Part shown: in pieces, positions 14,860 through 24,215 of the stretch
Position numbering within the stretch: position 1 is the first letter of the stretch
How the letters are laid out: every line of letters begins with the position of its first letter
Source: Halomonas denitrificans
Lineage (GTDB): Bacteria > Pseudomonadota > Gammaproteobacteria > Xanthomonadales > Wenzhouxiangellaceae
Reading direction: 5' to 3'
Length of the DNA: 64,000 nt
NCBI GenBank assembly: GCA_019800895.1
Contig: JAHVKF010000002.1
Span: 1-64,000 of the forward strand
Position numbers and translations under genes: made by a program
Notes under the pieces: model-generated
Databases searched by the model: none
The model's input: the letters and a program-made list of their open reading frames with translations, nothing else
Told to the model about the DNA's origin: nothing

Positions 14860-15545
14860 AGGCACCCGCCCACCCCGTCGCCCCCCGCTCCCCGTCGCCC
14901 CGCACCCTCTCCCCGTCGCCCCGCACTCGATGCGGGGCCCAGCGGCTTTCCAGGTTTTGTTCAATAGGCCAAAGTCGCTGGATCCCGGGTCAAGCCCGGG
15001 ACGACAGAAAGAAACCTCCCCGTAGCCCGGGTAAGCGAAGCGTACCGGGGCCCTTCAAGCCGCGAAAAGGGATCGACGCCGGAGCCGAGCACGACGCACG
15101 AAGAAACCCCGGGTGCGGCCCGCGGCCTTACCCGGGCTACGCAACCGTTAGAAAACCCGGGCGCTCTGTCGAGACGACCCGGCCTCCTTTCTACGTCGCC
15201 CCGCACCCCCTCCCCGTCGCCCCGCACTCGATGCGGGGTCCAGCGACTTTGAGGTTGTAGAACCAGAACCTAAAGTCGCTGGGACCCGGGTCAAGCCCGG
15301 GACGACAGAAAGAACCCCCCCGTAGCCCGGGTAAGCGAAGCGCACCCGGGGCCGTTCGAGCCGCGAAAAGGGATCGACGCCGGCGCCGAGCACGACGCAC
15401 GAAGAATCCCCGGGTGCGGCCCGCGGCCTTACCCGGGCTACGCAACCGAAAGAAAACCCGGGCGCTCTGTCGAGACGACCCGGGCTCTTTGTTCCGTCGC
15501 CCCGCACCGCTTGTCATGACCATTTGTCATGACCATCGCGGGGCC
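14860..15545. repeat. C and D palindromes in a duplicated block of about 245 bp
   Basis: Two near-identical blocks, 14971-15215 and 15272-15515 (offset 301 bp). Each has a D palindrome (CCCGGGTCAAGCCCGGGACG), a pair of inverted C elements, and the same 50-bp tail ending in CTCTGTCGAGACGACCCGG. Further D copies lie between. The gap 14824-15571 holds no gene. Confidence 0.9.
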
Positions 15546-17653: not shown

Positions 17654-17785
17654 GGGATCGTTCCGGGAAAATCAGCCGCCTATCCTACTCAGGGCGACGT
17701 GGAAACTGGGCGGCGTCGCAGAACACCCACAAAGTCGCTGGAACCGGGACGTGCAGAAGCAAGGTGCACGCCACCCACCCTTAGG

Positions 17786-18020
17786 CCGGGTAAGCGAAGC
17801 GCACCCGGGGCTTTCCCGACGCCGAAGACACCCCGGGTGCGCGAACCACGCTTATTCGGGCCACACCCAAAAATACAAGAGCTCGGCCCCCAGCCCGTCG
17901 TCCCAAACTTGATTTGGGACCCAGTGTCTTCGCCCCAACCCGTCGTCCCAAACTCGATTTGGGACCCAGTGTCTTCGCCCCAACCCGTCGTCCCAAACTC
18001 GATTTGGGACCCAGTGTCTT
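17786..18020. repeat. C inverted pair plus three E palindromes (module 1)
   Basis: An inverted pair of C elements (17786-17865) is followed by three tandem E units at 17897, 17942 and 17987 (45-bp period). Each unit holds GTCGTCCCAAACTCGATTTG then GGACCCAGTGTCTT. The array ends 14 bp from the stop of the first GIY-YIG gene. The same order recurs at 23277-23585. Confidence 0.93.
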
Positions 18021-18033
18021 TGCCTCCACGATT

Positions 18034-18324
18034 TCAAAGCCGATCCGAAAGATCCACCCAATACGGATTCCTCTGTTCGATCAGCTGCACCTTCCACCAA
18101 TGTTTCCAGGCCTTCAACTGCTTCTCCCGCGCAATCGCCTCGACGGCGGTCGAGAAGTACTCCACGTGAATTAGTCGATGAACGCGATGCGTCCGCGTGA
18201 ACCCCTTGACCGCACCGTTTCGATGAGCTTCGAGGCGTGCGACGAGATCCCGCGTCACGCCGATGTAGAGCGTGCCGTAACGTCGGCTGGCGAGGATGTA
18301 CACGACAAAGCGACCGAACTCCAT
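18034..18324 (-). CDS. GIY-YIG nuclease domain protein (module 1)
   Basis: 96 residues, a single GIY-YIG domain of the small UvrC-N/YhbQ-like type. Motif residues: YIL at 9-11, YIG at 20-22, the Arg/His stretch LVARLEAHR, and catalytic Glu E68 in AIAREKQLK. The C terminus, WWKVQLIEQRNPYWVDLSDRL, is typical of this family. The start MEFGRF aligns with the second copy; a Met 12 codons earlier is possible. It has 82 of 96 residues identical to the protein at 23602-23889, and both sit next to the same ordered repeat block. The likely role is cutting structured DNA such as the adjacent hairpins; this is inference. Confidence 0.9.
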   Translation of the reverse strand: MEFGRFVVYILASRRYGTLYIGVTRDLVARLEAHRNGAVKGFTRTHRVHRLIHVEYFSTAVEAIAREKQLKAWKHWWKVQLIEQRNPYWVDLSDRL

Positions 18325-18409
18325 GACCCGAGGATGGACGGGTCGGGCGTTCCAAAGCATCCGGAAAACGTCCCGGCGACTCGTAAGAATTCCGCTCGGT
18401 GTTCGAAAG

Positions 18410-18735
18410 ACACTGGGCCCTGAATCGAGTTCAGGGCGACTGGAGGGGAGGCAGCATACTCCTGGTCACCCTGAATCGAGTTCAGGGCGACCTGGGGGGG
18501 CAGCATACTCCTGGTCACCCTGGATCGAGTTCAGGGCGACAGCGGTCGGGCGGCGCGCGCCAACAGCCCGTCAGAGCGTCTCTACGGAACCCACGTGTTT
18601 TCGCCTTTTCCCGACGGCCCGACTCGGCTCGGGTCCGAGATGCCTTGCCCCCTCCTGTGCCCCGACTCGGACTGTGTCCCCACTGATGCCTCCCCCGTCG
18701 CCCTGAACTCGATTCAGGGCCCAGTGTCTTTTTTT
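18410..18735. repeat. D-type palindromes, 52-bp tandem
   Basis: Three copies of CCTGAATCGAGTTCAGGGCG near 18419, 18471 and 18522, separated by a repeated GGCAGCATACTCCTGGTCAC linker, plus another at about 18702. No gene in 18325-18906. Confidence 0.85.
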
Positions 18736-18906
18736 CGACGGAGTCCTAGGCCACCGACACGACCCCTCGGGAAAACCCGGGATTCGCGCCAAAGCATTCC
18801 CCGACAAGGGGCAAGGGTCGGCATGGATGAAAGCAGGCGAAAACACCGCCGGGCGGCTTCCTTCATTGGCGAAACCGCTCAGACGGTTTGTCGGCCAACC
18901 ACCCCC

Positions 18907-19449
18907 TCAGGGATCGGCATCCACCATGGCGGTGTAGTCGATGCGCCGGTCGCGCTCCGGGCCGCAGACGAGGGAGCCGCTCATGCGGGCCCGGAAGGTG
19001 CGGCGTTCGGCGTCCTCGATCTCGATCGACGAGGGTTCATCGCCGACCACGGCGGCGTCCTGGCACTTGGTGCCGTCGCCCAGCGTCAGGGTGAAGCGCA
19101 CGGCGGGCGTGTCGCCGTACCGGGAGATCTGGGCCCGGAAGCTGTGGTCGGCGGCACCGGTGATCTCGTCGTTGATGTCCGCGCCGGCCAGCACGGTGTT
19201 CGAGCCGATGCCGGTCACGCTGAGAATGGTTCCGCTGACCGTGCCTTCGAGATCTCCGCTGTACTCGACGCGCCACTCGGTACCGTCGCCCTCGCTGTTG
19301 TCGACGTTCGACGACGGCGTCGCCTGCGGGGCGTCAGTGGCTGCTGCGGACTCGGGCTTCCCGGCCGGGGCCGCATCGGCCGCCTCGTCCGAACCACAGC
19401 CGGCGATCAGCGCGGCCAGCGGGATCAAGAGTGTCGGAAGGGTTCTCAT
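18907..19449 (-). CDS. Small lipoprotein of unknown function
   Basis: 180 residues. Signal II peptide with lipobox LIAGC (Cys 18), then GSDEAADAAPAG. A low-complexity Ala/Ser/Pro/Asp linker covers 20-50. The C-terminal 120 residues look like a beta-rich domain with two Cys (TKCQDAA and LVCGPE) that could pair. I do not recognise the family. It lies 78 bp downstream of the acyltransferase gene on the same strand and may share its transcript. It is probably anchored to the inner or outer membrane facing the periplasm. Confidence 0.8.
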   Translation of the reverse strand: MRTLPTLLIPLAALIAGCGSDEAADAAPAGKPESAAATDAPQATPSSNVDNSEGDGTEWRVEYSGDLEGTVSGTILSVTGIGSNTVLAGADINDEITGAADHSFRAQISRYGDTPAVRFTLTLGDGTKCQDAAVVGDEPSSIEIEDAERRTFRARMSGSLVCGPERDRRIDYTAMVDADP

Positions 19450-19527
19450 AGCAACGCTCCTGGATCGATCTCGAACCAGCGATCACCCTAACCGAGCCGC
19501 GCCGTGCCCCGCAAACGGGCCGAGCGG

Positions 19528-20781
19528 TCACTCGCAGGTGCCCCGGGCGGCCGGACCCGGCACCGCCACCTCCCGCGCGATACCCGGCGCGCCGATCGGC
19601 TTGAGCCCGAACAGCGGCCGCAACCACCGCACGCGGCGGACAACGTATTCGTGCAGCACCAGGCAACCCAGCACCGTGCCGCCGACGACCAGCAGCGGCT
19701 CGACCACCGGGCCGAGCGCGTACGGCGTCAGCCCGGCACCGATCAGCACCGTCAGCGTCTGGTGCAGGATGTACCACGACACCACCGCCTCGGTGGCGTA
19801 GGCCAGCCCGCGGAACGGCCGGTTCAACGCGTACGCCCCCCAGCCCAGCACCGCGACCAGCCAGAACCACAGATTGAAGCTCTGGACGAAGCCGCTGGCG
19901 ATGTCCACCCAGCCGATCCGCTCCAGGCCCAGGAACCAGATCGCGAGCAGCGCCAGGTAGCTGGCCGCCGCCAGCGGCAGCGCCGCCCACCGGAGCCGGA
20001 CCAGTTCGCCCCAGGGCCCGTCGCTGCGGCCGAGCAGATAGCCGATGAAGAACGCGGTGCAGTAGGTCGCGTGGCCCTGCGGGTCGTTGAAGAACGCGTT
20101 GGTCTGCGGCGCGTCGCCCCAGACCGCCTTGATGGCCACGAACGGCACCACCGGCAGCACGAACAGCCACGCCCCACGCACCCCCCGCAGCCGCGCGATG
20201 GCGCGTTGCACGAAGCCCGACCGCAGCGCCGGTAGCAGCAGCGCCAGCAGCAGCGTGTAGGTCAGCAGGTAGGGCAGGAACCAGAGGTGGTTCCAGGTCA
20301 CGCCGATCTCCGAGCCGTCGAAGGCCCCGTCCGGCCAGGGCCGGAGGGTGAAGTAGGCGGCCAGGAAGTCCAGGTAGCCGCCACTCCACGCGCCGTTGGC
20401 CTGGGCCTGCAACCAGGCCTGCGGCGGCACGATCACCGCCATGCCGAACAGCAGCGGGACCAGCAGTCGCTTCGTCCGAAGCCAGGCGAAGCGCGGACCC
20501 GACACCTTGTCGAGCAGGAAATGGACGACCGTGCCCGAGATCAGGAACAGCAGTTCGAGGCGCCATTGGTTCACCAGCACCATCGGAAACTTCAGCCAGT
20601 CGGCCGTGTACTGCGACTTGACGTGCCAGCCCCAATCAGCGACATAGAACATGCCGCAGTGGTAGAGGATCAGCAGCGCGAAGGCCAGCACGCGCAGCGC
20701 GTCGATGTCGTGGCGACGGGCCGCCGTCGATGGCGGACCGGGGTTGGGTAGACTGCTGGCGGCGCTTCGAGTCGCGTTCAT
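19528..20781 (-). CDS. Membrane acyltransferase, family 3 (OpgC-like)
   Basis: 417 residues with about ten membrane helices. The family-3 hallmark is at the N terminus: RRHDIDALRVLAFALLILYHCGMF, with the catalytic-type His in RRHD. LWFLPYLL and HQTLTVLIG-type helices follow, as in OpgC/OafA proteins that transfer acyl groups to glycans. It could decorate periplasmic glucans or surface polysaccharide; the substrate is unknown. The start MNATRS gives a short Ala/Ser/Pro-rich leader. It is divergent from the LytTR operon across a 150-bp region, so the LytTR regulators are candidates to control it. Confidence 0.9.
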   Translation of the reverse strand: MNATRSAASSLPNPGPPSTAARRHDIDALRVLAFALLILYHCGMFYVADWGWHVKSQYTADWLKFPMVLVNQWRLELLFLISGTVVHFLLDKVSGPRFAWLRTKRLLVPLLFGMAVIVPPQAWLQAQANGAWSGGYLDFLAAYFTLRPWPDGAFDGSEIGVTWNHLWFLPYLLTYTLLLALLLPALRSGFVQRAIARLRGVRGAWLFVLPVVPFVAIKAVWGDAPQTNAFFNDPQGHATYCTAFFIGYLLGRSDGPWGELVRLRWAALPLAAASYLALLAIWFLGLERIGWVDIASGFVQSFNLWFWLVAVLGWGAYALNRPFRGLAYATEAVVSWYILHQTLTVLIGAGLTPYALGPVVEPLLVVGGTVLGCLVLHEYVVRRVRWLRPLFGLKPIGAPGIAREVAVPGPAARGTCE

Positions 20782-20931
20782 GGCGGCGGCCTCGCTGGAT
20801 GGAAACTGCAACCAGCTTGCGCGCGACGTGGACCCCGCGCCAGCACGAAGGGCTGCGGGGACGGGCCGCGGGGACGAACCGCGGCAGGGTGGGACGAGCC
20901 GTGGGCCGAGCCGCGGCGGACCGGAGAAGCG

Positions 20932-21792
20932 ATGACGCTCGACGATTGGCAGCGACACGAGACCCGCAACACGGCCCTGCTGTGGACCGGGTTCTTCGTC
21001 GTCCAGACCACCGCCAACATCGCCATCATCCGCGCCGACCTCGCGCGGATCGCGCTCGATTACCCGCTGTGGGCGGTACTGACCGCCGAGATCAGCTCGG
21101 CCGCCGTGCTGCTGGCGCTGATCCCCGTGCTGCTGGCCTTCGACCGGCGCTTTCCGATCCAGCCGCCGAACCTGCTCCAGCACGCCGCGGCCCACCTGCT
21201 GTTCACCGTGCCCTGGTCGGCCCTGCACGTGGCCGCCATGGTGGCGCTGCGCAAGCTGGTCTGGGCCGCGCGCGGCCAGACCTACGAGTTCGGCCCGCTG
21301 CTCGGCGAGTTCGGCTACGAGTACCTGAAGGACGTGCGGACCTACTCGGCGATCCTGGCCATCGTGTACCTCTATCGCTTCGTGATCCGGCGGCTGCGAG
21401 GCGAGGCGAAGTTCGTGCCCGAGGGGCACGCGCCCGACGGCGACCCGGACAACGACACGACGCGCGCGCCGGACCGCTTCCTGGTCAAGATGCTGGGCAA
21501 GGAGTTCCTGGTCCGCGTCGACGACATCGACTGGATCGAGGCCGCCGGCAACTACGTCACCCTGCATGTCGGAAGCAAGCCCTACATGCTGCGCGAGACC
21601 ATGGCCTCGATCGAGACCCGCCTGGCCGATCGCGGCTTCGCCCGCGTCCACCGCTCCGCCATCGTCCGCCTCGATCGCGTCGACCACATCGAACCCTTCG
21701 ACACCGGCGACGCCCGTGCCCACATGACCAGCGGCGCGCAGGTCCCGGTCAGCCGCAGCTACCGGCAGCAGCTGAAGGAGCGCCTGGCGTGA
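20932..21792 (+). CDS. Membrane-bound LytTR-domain transcription regulator (1)
   Basis: 286 residues. Four predicted membrane helices cover about 15-155. The C-terminal LytTR DNA-binding domain (about 180-284) has FLVKMLGKEFLVRVDDIDWIEAAGNYVTLHV and GFARVHRSAIVRLDRVDHIE, the usual beta-strand core. It has no receiver domain, so the membrane part probably senses the signal. Its TGA overlaps the GTG start of a second LytTR gene. It is divergent from the acyltransferase. Confidence 0.92.
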   Translation: MTLDDWQRHETRNTALLWTGFFVVQTTANIAIIRADLARIALDYPLWAVLTAEISSAAVLLALIPVLLAFDRRFPIQPPNLLQHAAAHLLFTVPWSALHVAAMVALRKLVWAARGQTYEFGPLLGEFGYEYLKDVRTYSAILAIVYLYRFVIRRLRGEAKFVPEGHAPDGDPDNDTTRAPDRFLVKMLGKEFLVRVDDIDWIEAAGNYVTLHVGSKPYMLRETMASIETRLADRGFARVHRSAIVRLDRVDHIEPFDTGDARAHMTSGAQVPVSRSYRQQLKERLA

Positions 21793-22589
21793 ACCTGCTC
21801 GGCGCGCTGGCGCCGTTTCGCGGCCTGGCTGCCGCACGACTGAGCCGCACGACCTCGGCCGAGCTCCTGACCCTGGCCGGCGCGACCGTCGTGGCCCTTC
21901 TGGTGTATTGCGTGGGCCACGCCACCCTGACCGCCGAGCCGCTGATGTTCGGCCGCTCCCTGGCCTGGTCGCTGGCGCACGGCGCCGGGCTGGCAGCGCT
22001 GCTGGCCGGTGCGCGATCCGCCGAGCGCGTCGATCGAGCCTGGATGCTGCCGATCTCGCTCGTCGTCGGGTTGGGCACGAGTACGGCCGTGCTGATGATG
22101 GGAGGCCGGCTGCTCGCCGGCGCGTGGCTGCTTCCCGACTACGTCACGTCCACGACCTACGCCGCTGGCGCAGTCGCGCTGACCTGGCTGGTCCGACCCG
22201 GCCCCGCGTCGGAGCGTGTGCTGCTGGTCGACTTCGGAACCGCGCGCGAGCGGATCGCGATGGGCTCGATCCTGGCCGCCCACGGGGCTCGCAACTACGC
22301 CGAACTGCACCTGGTCGACGATCCCCGCCCGGCCCTGGTCCGCAGCACCCTGTCCGGACTGGAGAACGAGTGCGGGGGCCAACTGGTCCGCGTCCAGCGA
22401 TCCTGGCTGGTCAACCCGGACCACCTGGAGCGGCTGCTCCAGGGGCCACGCGGCACGCTTCGGATCCAATTGAAGGGCGGGCTCGAAGTCCCCGTCAGCG
22501 CCCGCTACGCCGAGGCCGTCCGATCCGACCCGCGCTTCGTCCCGGCCCGTGCCGATTCGTCCCCGGAGGCTGGACGCGAAGCGGTCTGA
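21789..22589 (+). CDS. Membrane-bound LytTR-domain transcription regulator (2)
   Basis: 266 residues from a GTG that overlaps the preceding TGA (GTGA). About four membrane helices (25-145) precede a LytTR-like domain at about 155-255: ERVLLVDFGTARERIAMGSI, ARNYAELHLVDD and GGQLVRVQRSWLVNPDHLERL. The LytTR match is more diverged than in regulator 1; the motif residues N-x-A/V and R-x-H/QRS are kept. Tight coupling suggests the two act as a heterodimer or a sensor/regulator pair. The frame is also open far upstream, but the coupled GTG is the natural start. Confidence 0.85.
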   Translation: MNLLGALAPFRGLAAARLSRTTSAELLTLAGATVVALLVYCVGHATLTAEPLMFGRSLAWSLAHGAGLAALLAGARSAERVDRAWMLPISLVVGLGTSTAVLMMGGRLLAGAWLLPDYVTSTTYAAGAVALTWLVRPGPASERVLLVDFGTARERIAMGSILAAHGARNYAELHLVDDPRPALVRSTLSGLENECGGQLVRVQRSWLVNPDHLERLLQGPRGTLRIQLKGGLEVPVSARYAEAVRSDPRFVPARADSSPEAGREAV

Positions 22590-22639
22590 GCACGATTCTC
22601 GGGGCACACCCCGAAGCCATCGTCTCGAAGGAAGCGCCC

Positions 22640-23191
22640 ATGACCGCACCCTGCACCCGCGCCACGATCCTCGTCGCCGCACTTCTGCTGATCCTCCCCC
22701 CGGCCGCGCCGGCCGCCGGACTCGACGACCCCGGAGCCCAGGGCCCCGGTCCGGCAGAACGCCGCGACGCGCCCCATCGCCCATCCCCGGGCCCAGCGAC
22801 CGACGAAGACCTCCTCCGCACCCTGAAGACCGAAACCTGGCCGCGCGCCTACCGGACCCGGGATGTCGCGCTGCTGGAATCGATCCTGGCCGAGGAGTTC
22901 GTGCTGATCGACGCCAACGGCGGCATCACCGACCGCCGCACGGAGCTGTCGACCCTGCCCGACTATCGCTGGACCCACGATCACTTCGACTACCGCATCG
23001 ATCACCTGGAAATCATCGACCACCACACCGCCATCGTCGCCGGCACAGGAGAGGCCCATGGCACGCGCGACGGCACGCCCTATTGCCTGAGCTATCGCTC
23101 CAGCAACGTCCTGGTCCGGAGAGACGAAAGCTGGCGCGCCGTCCTGTCGCATGTCTCCGGCGTCGACACCGGGTGCGAGGACACCGACTGA
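22640..23191 (+). CDS. Exported SnoaL/DUF4440-like protein
   Basis: 183 residues. Signal peptide ATILVAALLLILPPAAPAAG, then a Pro/Gly linker to about 55. An NTF2-like cone domain follows: WPRAYRTRDVALLESILAEEFVLIDANGGITDRRTEL and YRSSNVLVRRDESWRAVLSHVSG, typical of DUF4440 proteins. These bind or turn over small molecules; no ligand can be named. It begins 50 bp after the LytTR operon on the same strand. Its last 100 bp overlap the read-through end of the opposite GIY-YIG gene. Confidence 0.85.
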   Translation: MTAPCTRATILVAALLLILPPAAPAAGLDDPGAQGPGPAERRDAPHRPSPGPATDEDLLRTLKTETWPRAYRTRDVALLESILAEEFVLIDANGGITDRRTELSTLPDYRWTHDHFDYRIDHLEIIDHHTAIVAGTGEAHGTRDGTPYCLSYRSSNVLVRRDESWRAVLSHVSGVDTGCEDTD

Positions 23192-23889
23192 GTCCGTGTG
23201 CTGATCAAACCCCGACCCGCTGTCCTCCAGTTGCCCCCACTGGATCGCTCGACTCGCGAAACCCACGATGCCCCCGTAGCCCGGGTAAGCGAAGCGCACC
23301 CGGGACCTGTCCTGAACCTGCGAAACCCTCGGGTGCGCGCAAGGCGCTTACCCGGGCTACTCTGGCCGAGTTCCCACCACTCGAATCGCACGCCCGGGCT
23401 CCCCTGTTCCGTCGTCCCAAACTTGATTTGGGACCCAGTGTCTTCGCCCTTGCCCGTCGTCCCAAACTCGATTTGGGACCCAGTGTCTTCCCCCCCCAGC
23501 CCGTCGTCCCAAACTCGATTTGGGACCCAGTGTCTTCCCCCCCCCCAACCCGTCGTCCCAAACTCGATTTGGGACCCAGTGTCTTTGCCTCCACGATTTC
23601 GAAGCCGATCCGAAAGATCCACCCAATACGGATTCCTCTGTTCGATCAGCTGCACCTTCCACCAACGCTTCCAGGCCTTCAACTGCTTCTCCCGCGCAAT
23701 CGCCTCCATCGCCGTAGCAAACCTCTCGACATGCACAAGGCGGTGCACGCTATGCGTCCGAGTGAACCCGGCGACCGCTCCGGACCGATGAGCCTCGAGC
23801 CGAGCAACAAGATCACGCGTCACGCCGATGTACAGCGTGCCGTTGCGTCGGTTGGTCAGGATGTAGACCGCAAAGCGCCCGGAGTCCAT
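23092..23889 (-). CDS. GIY-YIG nuclease domain protein with stop-codon loss (module 2)
   Basis: The first 96 codons (23602-23889) encode a GIY-YIG protein 85% identical to the one at 18034-18324: YIL 9-11, YIG 20-22, E68. In copy 1 the codon after DLSDRL is TGA. Here it is CGA (23599-23601), so translation would run on for about 169 codons through the E palindromes (KDTGSQIEFGTT repeated) and into antisense of the DUF4440 gene. The extension is clearly repeat DNA, not an evolved domain. The nuclease core looks intact, but the protein may be unstable. Confidence 0.85.
   Translation of the reverse strand: MDSGRFAVYILTNRRNGTLYIGVTRDLVARLEAHRSGAVAGFTRTHSVHRLVHVERFATAMEAIAREKQLKAWKRWWKVQLIEQRNPYWVDLSDRLRNRGGKDTGSQIEFGTTGWGGGRHWVPNRVWDDGLGGEDTGSQIEFGTTGKGEDTGSQIKFGTTEQGSPGVRFEWWELGQSSPGKRLARTRGFRRFRTGPGCASLTRATGASWVSRVERSSGGNWRTAGRGLISTRTQSVSSHPVSTPETCDRTARQLSSLRTRTLLER
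23277..23585. repeat. C inverted pair plus four E palindromes (module 2)
   Basis: An inverted pair of C elements (23277-23361; arms about 28 bp) is followed by E units at 23411, 23456, 23503 and 23552. The spacing is 45, 47 and 49 bp because a C-tract in the linker varies in length. The last unit lies against the second GIY-YIG gene, as in module 1. Confidence 0.93.
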
Positions 23890-23974: not shown

Positions 23975-24215
23975 CGCTGGGTCCCGGGTCAAGCCCGGGA
24001 CGACAGAAATTCAGACCGACCTTTCCTCTTTTCCAGTCGCCCCGCACTTGATGCGGGGCCCAGTGACTTCCCCATCCGTCGCCCCGGACCTGATCCGGGG
24101 CCCAGCGACTTCTTTTTTGCCGTTGCCCGCGCAAAAGAAAGCCCGAGTGCGCTGAGCGCACACCCGGGCTTCCTCATCCCGTCGCCCCGCACTGGATGCG
24201 GGGCCCAGCGACTTT
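23975..24215. repeat. D palindromes between convergent-free genes
   Basis: Four D units (near 23975-24005, 24037-24068, 24078-24110 and 24181-24215) with stem sequences such as CCCGGGTCAAGCCCGGGACG and CCCCGCACTTGATGCGGGGC. They lie downstream of the DUF305 gene and could act as transcription terminators or mRNA stabilisers. No gene in 23890-24221. Confidence 0.85.

What the first reader, a model, noticed from the sequence alone, without database searches (positions are those of the whole stretch)
17786..23889. Two copies of a GIY-YIG nuclease module with ordered palindromic repeats
Seen: at 17786-18324 and 23277-23889 the same order occurs: inverted pair of C elements, 3 or 4 E palindromes, then a GIY-YIG gene facing the array with its stop 14-17 bp away. 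The two proteins are 85% identical (82/96). Known: RAYT transposases maintain REP palindromes in other bacteria; GIY-YIG enzymes cut structured DNA. Inference: this nuclease may recognise and spread or maintain the E/C hairpins as a RAYT-like, transposase-free selfish unit. The array unit count differs (3 versus 4), which suggests turnover. I consider this the best candidate for an undescribed system in the window.
Basis: partly seen in the sequence, partly recalled or inferred. Interest (0 to 1): 0.8.

Follow-up and report, generated by a model that had tools for sequence, protein, structure and literature searches.

The report
GIY-YIG nuclease paired with CGTC repeats
Two small DNA-cutting-enzyme genes in this window sit between the same kind of short hairpin repeats that surround many of their relatives in distant bacteria, which makes this enzyme family a strong candidate for the missing partner of a repeat family whose means of spreading has been unknown.

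Summary
The 'E' palindromes are CGTC-tagged REPs, a superfamily said in 2013 to 'apparently lack a dedicated transposase'. The gene is a 96-aa GIY-YIG nuclease. CGTC hairpins lie within 300 bp of it in 36 of the 60 best and 5 of the 30 weaker matches in the order, and in 64 of the 80 best named loci. Density is 5-7/kb within 100 bp and about 0.1/kb or less beyond 1 kb. Controls: 0 of 30 Y1 transposase loci, 0 of 27 other GIY-YIG loci. The gene usually sits inside an inverted pair with tags outward (68 of 88). The two flanking repeats match each other and co-vary with the protein. Related units at different sites begin and end near the tags, without target duplications. The 'C' palindromes are GTAG REPs; copies flank the genome's own RAYT-like gene. 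Copy 2 has lost its stop codon. Best reading: a REP-partner unit that works like RAYT/REPIN but uses a GIY-YIG nuclease. Association and unit ends are shown; cutting and copying are inferred.

The parts
18034..18324 (-). GIY-YIG nuclease gene, copy 1 (96 aa, intact, stop TGA at 18036-18034)
   Evidence: Pfam PF01541; translation; model pLDDT 89.9
17896..17923 (+). CGTC REP (E), copy 1 array, outermost
   Evidence: CGTC.GTCCCAAA.CTTGA.TTTGGGAC.CCA
17941..17968 (+). CGTC REP (E), copy 1 array
17986..18013 (+). CGTC REP (E), copy 1 array, 20 bp from the stop codon; on the strand opposite the gene
18414..18441 (-). CGTC-type REP (tag AGTC) on the start side of gene 1; closes the inverted pair around the gene
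   Evidence: AGTC.GCCCTGAA.CTCGA.TTCAGGGC.CCA
23602..23889 (-). GIY-YIG nuclease gene, copy 2; the stop codon of copy 1 is CGA here and the frame stays open to 23092
23410..23437 (+). CGTC REP (E), copy 2 array, outermost
23455..23482 (+). CGTC REP (E), copy 2 array
23502..23529 (+). CGTC REP (E), copy 2 array
23551..23578 (+). CGTC REP (E), copy 2 array, nearest the gene
23978..24005 (-). CGTC-type REP (tag TGTC) on the start side of gene 2; closes the inverted pair around the gene
   Evidence: TGTC.GTCCCGGG.CTTGA.CCCGGGAC.CCA
17781..17864 (.). C pair beside copy 1: GTAG-type REP pair, judged a separate element (RAYT-type), not part of the unit
   Evidence: right edge read from the sequence
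23276..23361 (.). C pair beside copy 2: GTAG-type REP pair, judged a separate element
   Evidence: right edge read from the sequence

Best explanation
A very small GIY-YIG nuclease gene (about 290 bp) flanked by inverted CGTC REPs forms a compact selfish unit whose outer ends are the CGTC tags. The nuclease recognises its cognate CGTC hairpin. In trans it helps copy or maintain gene-less inverted REP pairs around the genome, as RAYT transposases are thought to do for GTAG REPs/REPINs. Shown here: the association, its geometry, co-variation of repeat and protein, unit ends at or near the tags, no target-site duplication, and gene-less pairs of matching repeats in the genomes looked at. Inferred: that the protein nicks or cuts at the hairpin or branched junction of the pair, and that host repair (annealing, gene conversion or template switching) does the copying, since GIY-YIG enzymes hydrolyse DNA and have no known strand-transfer activity (recalled). 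That copying runs through repair at the REP is suggested, not shown, by identity between the two window copies rising towards the E array.
For: Density of CGTC hairpins by distance from the match ends: 5.08/kb within 100 bp against 0.00-0.02/kb in the bins from 1 to 6 kb (60 loci); 7.17/kb against 0.03-0.10/kb (80 loci). Within 300 bp: 36 of 60 and 5 of the remaining 30 order loci, 64 of 80 named loci. Inverted repeats around the gene without any REP definition: 36 of 59, 12 of 29 and 41 of 68 loci, against 0 of 799 displaced windows of the same loci. Controls: 0 of 30 Y1_Tnp loci, 0 of 27 other GIY-YIG loci. Tags outward in 68 of 88 two-sided loci; left and right stems alike 0.869 against 0.487 +- 0.028 permuted; Mantel r 0.295, permuted maximum 0.164, N=108 (the 30 weaker order loci not included). 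Symmetry extends inward from the REP: 0.498 against 0.272 +- 0.020 in 62 units. Units at different sites end within 13 bp of a REP edge on both sides in 7 of 9 measurable non-syntenic pairs, which are not all independent; letters for three groups. No shared flank of 3 bp or more in 39 units. Genomes with the gene hold more CGTC-1 REPs: median 15.5 against 0, 62 against 138 genomes, p 9e-15. In G150, 10 gene-less dimers plus the gene's own pair make 22 of 26 copies. Catalytic-site columns conserved (roles recalled); fold nearest UPF0213, then Slx1 and UvrC, only the first at E below 0.001.
Against: No cleavage, binding or transposition data. Many members lack a strict CGTC hairpin within 300 bp: 24 of 60, 25 of 30 weaker ones and 16 of 80; some of the 24 carry hairpins with altered tag or tail, others none. 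13 of 138 genomes without the gene have at least 10 CGTC-1 REPs, and none of their 25 PF01541 loci has a CGTC hairpin nearby. Nine gene-positive genomes, the window's own among them, have no match to the CGTC-1 pattern. Neither the Mantel figure nor the genome correlation is corrected for kinship. Repeat types are not always uniform: G179's 62 copies are of mixed stems. Gene copy number is low (92 matches in 62 genomes), so amplification of the gene itself is rare; 3 of the 90 matches outside the own genome have internal stops. There is also a small excess of symmetry outside the REPs (0.351 against 0.286 +- 0.020, equal to the highest of 1000 permutations). In the window copies the two flanking stems differ and the 5' part of the unit is diverged. 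Empty sites in Shinella are too diverged to show a junction.
Confidence: 0.65

Rival explanations
1. Homing into REPs: CGTC REP pairs spread by some other agent, and the GIY-YIG gene is a free-standing homing gene that cuts gene-less REP pairs and is copied into them by repair. REPs are its target, not its product.
For: GIY-YIG homing endonucleases exist (recalled). Similarity ending at the REP edges is expected here too, because donor and recipient share REPs. In G150 the gene sits inside a pair of the dispersed type. Identity rises towards the array in the window copies, as after local gene conversion. 13 genomes keep 10 or more CGTC-1 REPs without the gene.
Against: Leaves unexplained what spreads the REPs and why gene presence tracks REP number. 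In G043 only 3 CGTC-1 matches exist and one lies beside its gene, though its second gene has a repeat type that pattern does not cover. The pair around a gene is matched and follows the protein.
Confidence: 0.2
2. Host or regulatory role: the hairpins act as terminators or autoregulatory sites of the nuclease gene, and the nuclease is a domesticated repair or REP-maintenance enzyme with no part in spreading.
For: Hairpins often lie within tens of bp of start and stop codons (21 loci shown). RAYTs too are often single-copy (recalled), and most positive genomes here have one gene.
Against: Patchy presence: 62 of 200 genomes of the order, and of five other same-genus genomes only one has it. Related units at unrelated sites. 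Inverted matched pairs with tags outward and dispersed gene-less pairs are not needed for termination.
Confidence: 0.1
3. Hitch-hiking: REP clusters are tolerant insertion regions and the gene is one of many small cargo genes found there.
For: The window itself is rich in E and C repeats, and the window's genes lie in one of several E-rich regions.
Against: Near-zero REP density 1-6 kb away; 0 of 799 displaced windows with such inverted repeats; 0 of 30 Y1_Tnp and 0 of 27 other GIY-YIG loci; matched pairs.
Confidence: 0.04

Closest known systems
CGTC REPs of Di Nocera et al. 2013 (PMC3733652), including Neisseria dRS3 (CGTC-1) and rickettsial RPE-4/RPE-6
   Same: Tag, 8-9 bp stem, 4-5 nt loop, CCA tail, dimers mostly with tags outside (HH). 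A Neisseria gonorrhoeae relative of the gene lies within an array of dRS3-like hairpins.
   Different: That paper found no dedicated enzyme ('association to TPAse genes -', Table 1). The window's stems begin GT or GC rather than the usual AT. The GIY-YIG partner is the new part.
REP-associated tyrosine transposases (RAYTs), REPtrons and REPINs
   Same: Single gene flanked by cognate REPs, low gene copy number, dispersed gene-less inverted pairs (RAYT side and recalled).
   Different: Enzyme is a GIY-YIG nuclease, not a Y1/HUH transposase; repeats are CGTC, not GTAG. The same genome also has a GTAG/Y1_Tnp pair.
Free-standing GIY-YIG homing endonucleases (recalled)
   Same: Same superfamily; gene carried by repair of its own cut; no target duplication expected.
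   Different: No intron and no conserved host-gene target seen; flanked by hairpin REPs that exist in gene-less copies.
UPF0213, Slx1 and UvrC GIY-YIG domains
   Same: Fold: best Foldseek hit 1zg2 (UPF0213, E 2.9e-4), then Slx1 and UvrC domains at E 0.01-0.1; best sequence hits 1zg2 and 1ywl.
   Different: None of the 27 loci of UvrC-like and other GIY-YIG genes examined has a CGTC hairpin within up to 1.5 kb.
Insertion sequences and MITEs
   Same: Inverted ends, non-autonomous short derivatives, related units at unrelated sites.
   Different: No transposase, no target-site duplication, ends are hairpins.

Membership tests
CGTC REP superfamily | CGTC (or TGTC/CCTC) tag at one end | tested here: met
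   All seven array E copies carry CGTC; the two start-side copies carry AGTC and TGTC; definition
CGTC REP superfamily | 8-9 bp stem, 4-5 nt loop, CCA tail | tested here: met
   8 bp, 5 nt, CCA in all nine E copies of the two units
CGTC REP superfamily | Stem 'almost invariably' begins AT | tested here: not met
   Stems of the nine copies begin GT or GC. A usual trait, not an absolute one; many relatives' flanking stems do begin AT
CGTC REP superfamily | Mostly inverted dimers with tags outside (HH) | tested here: met
   Gene-flanking pairs 68 of 88; 10 gene-less dimers in G150; definition
GIY-YIG superfamily | Pfam PF01541 above gathering score | tested here: met
   52.4 and 55.3 bits against 22.6
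GIY-YIG superfamily | Conserved catalytic residues and fold | tested here: met
   Y9, G22, R30, H34, E67 invariant and N86 nearly so in 22 sequences (roles recalled); model pLDDT 89.9, fold hits
GIY-YIG superfamily | Endonuclease activity | not testable with these tools
   No assay
RAYT/REPtron | Y1 (HUH) tyrosine transposase | tested here: not met
   Protein matches PF01541 only in Pfam
RAYT/REPtron | GTAG REPs flank the gene | tested here: not met
   GTAG hairpins within 300 bp in 1 of 60 and 2 of 80 relatives; in the window the C pairs lie beyond the E array and outside the shared unit
Homing endonuclease | Cuts the allele lacking the gene and is copied into it | not testable with these tools
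   Present/absent sites found in Shinella, but flanks too diverged to show a junction
Insertion sequence (DDE type) | Target-site duplication | tested here: not met
   0 of 39 single-pair units share 3 or more bp
Mobile unit (any mechanism) | Homologous copies at unrelated sites with defined ends | tested here: met
   7 of 9 measurable pairs within 13 bp of a REP edge on both sides, letters; does not separate unit movement from homing into REPs

The most novel reading that the evidence does not exclude
A class of minimal mobile elements of roughly 350-600 bp, found in many bacterial phyla, in which one GIY-YIG nuclease of about 96 aa acts alone, without transposase, recombinase or reverse transcriptase. 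It cuts the cloverleaf or hairpin formed by its inverted CGTC ends and lets host repair copy the unit. It also spawns the CGTC REP families, including dRS3 of Neisseria.
Probability: 0.4. Interest if true: 0.95.

Novelty: new variant of a known kind. Interest (0 to 1): 0.85.

Why it matters
CGTC REPs are reported from five phyla, mostly alpha-Proteobacteria, and the paper that defined them states that they apparently lack a dedicated transposase (PMC3733652). A dedicated, co-varying nuclease makes the origin and upkeep of these repeats directly testable. It would also be an independent counterpart of RAYT/REPIN, in which a simple hydrolytic nuclease replaces a transposase.

Tried and rejected
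C elements as part of the unit: rejected. Segmental duplication with shared flanks: rejected. Target-site duplication: none. Empty-site junction in Shinella: unit present in two fetched records (L224, L225) and absent in five (L229-L233) at the same intergenic place, but flanks are too diverged, so no junction is claimed. The Sinorhizobium hflX-mazG site turned out filled in both records (repeat-copy difference), so it is no empty site. Rhizobium plasmids: no near empty site seen in the listed rows (133 and 131 further records not listed). GTAG hairpins beside the 30 Y1_Tnp loci were not found by my perfect-stem finder (0 of 30 within 300 bp), so that finder is a weak positive control and may also miss GTAG repeats beside GIY-YIG genes; the own genome's locus L017 does score on both sides. 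The weaker relatives were fetched after the best 60 to avoid top-hit bias, and they lower the rate. Cloverleaf fold of dimers: 3 of 8 fold as a full three-arm cloverleaf closed by the tags, one more shows the three arms without the closing stem, three prefer one long hairpin, one is irregular. Literature: searches showed no paper linking GIY-YIG with CGTC REPs, dRS3 or RAYT-like roles in the rows listed; some searches listed 20 of 135, 61 and 30 papers. Subscription journals and preprints were not searchable. Papers: PMC3733652 abstract, sections 6, 7 and 14, part 1 of section 17, and passages; PMC6006769 and PMC12306157 passages only; all others search listings only.
Full report
WHAT IS THERE. 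Two GIY-YIG genes lie on the minus strand, 85% identical in protein. Behind each lie three or four copies of one hairpin, CGTC-GTCCCAAA-CTCGA-TTTGGGAC-CCA (one copy per array has loop CTTGA), and in front of each, about 90 bp from the start codon, lies one hairpin of the same build on the other strand. The gene is therefore enclosed by an inverted pair with the tags outward. Genome-wide, 88 places match the E pattern with up to 2 mismatches, against 1 for the reversed control pattern. Among these the stem TCCCAAA/TTTGGGA of the arrays is otherwise seen only at C2:257-272 kb.

WHAT E AND C ARE. E fits the CGTC-tagged REPs of Di Nocera et al. (PMC3733652): tag, stem of 8-9 bp, loop of 4-5, tail CCA, mostly inverted dimers with tags outside. 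The one misfit is that window stems start GT or GC, not AT. [quoted passage not shown] C is GTAG-CCCGGGTAAGCGNAGCGCACCCGGG, a GTAG REP. Copies lie on both sides of a weak Y1_Tnp match at C1:853586-853840, which is below Pfam's cut-off. The two repeat kinds in this genome thus seem to have two different partner genes.

ASSOCIATION. The copy-1 protein was searched in 200 genomes of the order: 62, the own genome among them, have a match at E<=1e-8; of five other same-genus genomes only one does. I fetched all 90 listed matches outside the own genome: the best 60 with up to 6 kb on each side, then the other 30 (two neighbouring genes of G028 share one locus). Distances run from the ends of the protein match. 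With a strict definition (CGTC/TGTC tag, 8-10 bp stem with at most one mismatch, loop 3-6, CCA/CTA tail) the best 60 show 5.08 hairpins per kb within 100 bp and 0.00-0.02 per kb in the bins from 1 to 6 kb; 36 of 60 have one within 300 bp and 26 of 60 on both sides. The remaining 30 give 5 of 30 strict and 9 of 30 relaxed, so the link weakens in more distant members; over the order it is 41 of 90 strict. If only a tenth of the distant flank were intergenic and held every distant hairpin, the contrast would still be about 37-fold and 12-fold in the two sets (my arithmetic). The positive named loci include titles from Zixiibacteriota, Nitrospirae, Planctomycetota, Dehalococcoidia, Omnitrophus, Saccharibacteria and Kerfeldbacteria; many are metagenome assemblies, so single names may be wrong. 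Of nine loci read from the plasmid collection: a Neisseria gonorrhoeae record (chromosome-size, filed as plasmid) has the gene inside a field of dRS3-like hairpins; two Shinella and one Rhizobium plasmid have it between matched pairs; Sinorhizobium meliloti and Rhizobium tumorigenes have CCTC-tagged hairpins recognised on one side; L221, L222 and L223 show none.

CONTROLS. Y1_Tnp loci: 0 of 30 with a CGTC hairpin within 300 bp. Other GIY-YIG loci (UvrC-like by length and others, two of them of the own genome, none matched by the copy-1 protein): 0 of 27 with any within up to 1.5 kb. Without any REP definition, inverted repeats scoring at least 20 between the two 300-bp flanks occur in 36 of 59, 12 of 29 and 41 of 68 loci and in 0 of 302, 0 of 158 and 0 of 339 displaced windows of the same loci (loci with short flanks left out).

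FORM OF THE UNIT. In 139 pooled loci (60 order, 77 named, 2 window; the 30 weaker order loci not included) with a relaxed definition, 108 have a hairpin near the gene and 88 on both sides; the nearest pair has tags outward in 68 of 88. Left and right stems of one locus resemble each other (0.869) far more than shuffled partners (0.487 +- 0.028, maximum 0.591 in 2000). Protein similarity and repeat similarity correlate (Mantel r 0.295, maximum of 999 permutations 0.164, N=108). Two paralogues in one genome can have repeats of different stem and loop length (G043, G093), while proteins 70-80% identical in different genomes (each named locus counted as its own genome) share at least 7 of 8 stem bases and the loop length in 61% of 160 pairs. 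Host kinship is not corrected for. In 62 of 67 canonical units usable for it, symmetry continues inward past the CCA tail (0.498 against 0.272 +- 0.020), with a much smaller excess outward (0.351 against 0.286 +- 0.020). Altered tags and tails occur in groups of loci (tail CGC in L078, L081, L093, L095, L097; tag CGCC in L058; another palindrome altogether in L084, on both sides).

MOVEMENT. Among 37 aligned segments across the gene at 76% or more between loci, 16 are not syntenic by my rule (neither flank aligned beyond 450 bp). Nine of these have repeats recognised on both sides, and in seven the segment ends within 13 bp of a REP edge on both sides; the nine are not independent (L050/L052/L054 give three, L072 three). 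Alignments of L050/L052/L054, L072/L076/L082 and L123/L128 (two contigs of one assembly) show similarity beginning at the tag and stopping at its complement to within a few bp. No target-site duplication is seen in 39 single-pair units. These ends do not by themselves separate a unit that carries its REPs from a gene that homes into existing REP pairs. In G150, 22 of 26 CGTC-1 copies form 11 inverted pairs; one contains the gene, ten have spacers of 23-60 nt, and 19 of 26 copies have the exact CCAGC/GCTGG core of the gene's own pair (counted by hand). G020's copies have loop GCAG in 11 of 17, as beside its gene, while G064's have it in 0 of 44 and its gene has GAAA (counted by hand). The fourth genome searched, G179, is less tidy: its 62 copies have mixed stems.

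GENOME-WIDE LINK AND ITS FAILURES. CGTC-1 copies in the same 200 genomes: median 15.5 in 62 with the gene, 0 in 138 without (p 9e-15), at least 10 copies in 37 of 62 against 13 of 138. Against the link: those 13 genomes have REPs, yet none of their 25 PF01541 loci has a CGTC hairpin nearby (four of the 13 are under 90% complete), and nine genomes with the gene, the own one included, have no CGTC-1 match.

PROTEIN. Residues Y9, G22, R30, H34 and E67 are invariant and N86 nearly so in 22 sequences, the positions expected for a GIY-YIG site (recalled). The model (pLDDT 89.9) matches UPF0213 1zg2 best (E 2.9e-4), then Slx1, a nuclease of branched DNA, and UvrC at weaker E-values.

HOW IT PROBABLY WORKS. 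The inverted pair can fold as one long hairpin or as a branched three-arm form. I propose that the nuclease cuts its cognate hairpin or that junction, and that repair from another copy spreads the pair, with or without the gene. The two window copies are near-identical only from mid-gene through the array, as gene conversion started at the array would leave. All of this last step is inference.

COMPARISON. It works like RAYT/REPIN but is not a member: no Y1 domain, and GTAG repeats are not what flanks the gene in its relatives. It holds CGTC REPs of a known superfamily and a nuclease of a known superfamily; the pairing is what I could not find in print within the searches named under Tried and rejected.

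Noticed in passing
window 15022-57255: C (GTAG) and E (CGTC) hairpins form composite arrays: 13 of 15 C matches in the window lie within 30 bp of an E hairpin, 11 of them 15-18 bp away (counted by hand).
   Followed up: partly
window 23599-23601: Copy 2 has CGA where copy 1 has its TGA stop; the frame runs through four E repeats to 23092, giving a repeat-coded C-terminal extension if translated.
   Followed up: partly
G000:C1:853283-853940 (L017): A weak Y1_Tnp match with C (GTAG) hairpins on both sides: the probable RAYT of the C family.
   Followed up: partly
own genome, C2:255-272 kb, C2:545 kb, C3:183-189 kb, C3:629-646 kb, C3:801 kb: E repeats are clustered in islands rather than spread evenly.
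   Followed up: no
L084 (G048), about 50 bp on either side of the gene: A relative flanked by a quite different palindrome (GCGGCCC-GCA-GGGCCGC), also as an inverted pair; it may show a switch of specificity.
   Followed up: no
L219 against L227: Sinorhizobium meliloti has more copies of the repeat pair beside the gene than Sinorhizobium sp. M103 at the same site: array expansion or loss.
   Followed up: partly
L218 (NZ_CP119140.1): A 2.17 Mb Neisseria gonorrhoeae record is filed as a plasmid in the collection; by size it looks like a chromosome.
   Followed up: no
window 14914-15006 and 15215-15307: Two gene-less inverted CGTC pairs with the same 37-nt spacing, folding into two hairpins and a central stem.
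   Followed up: partly
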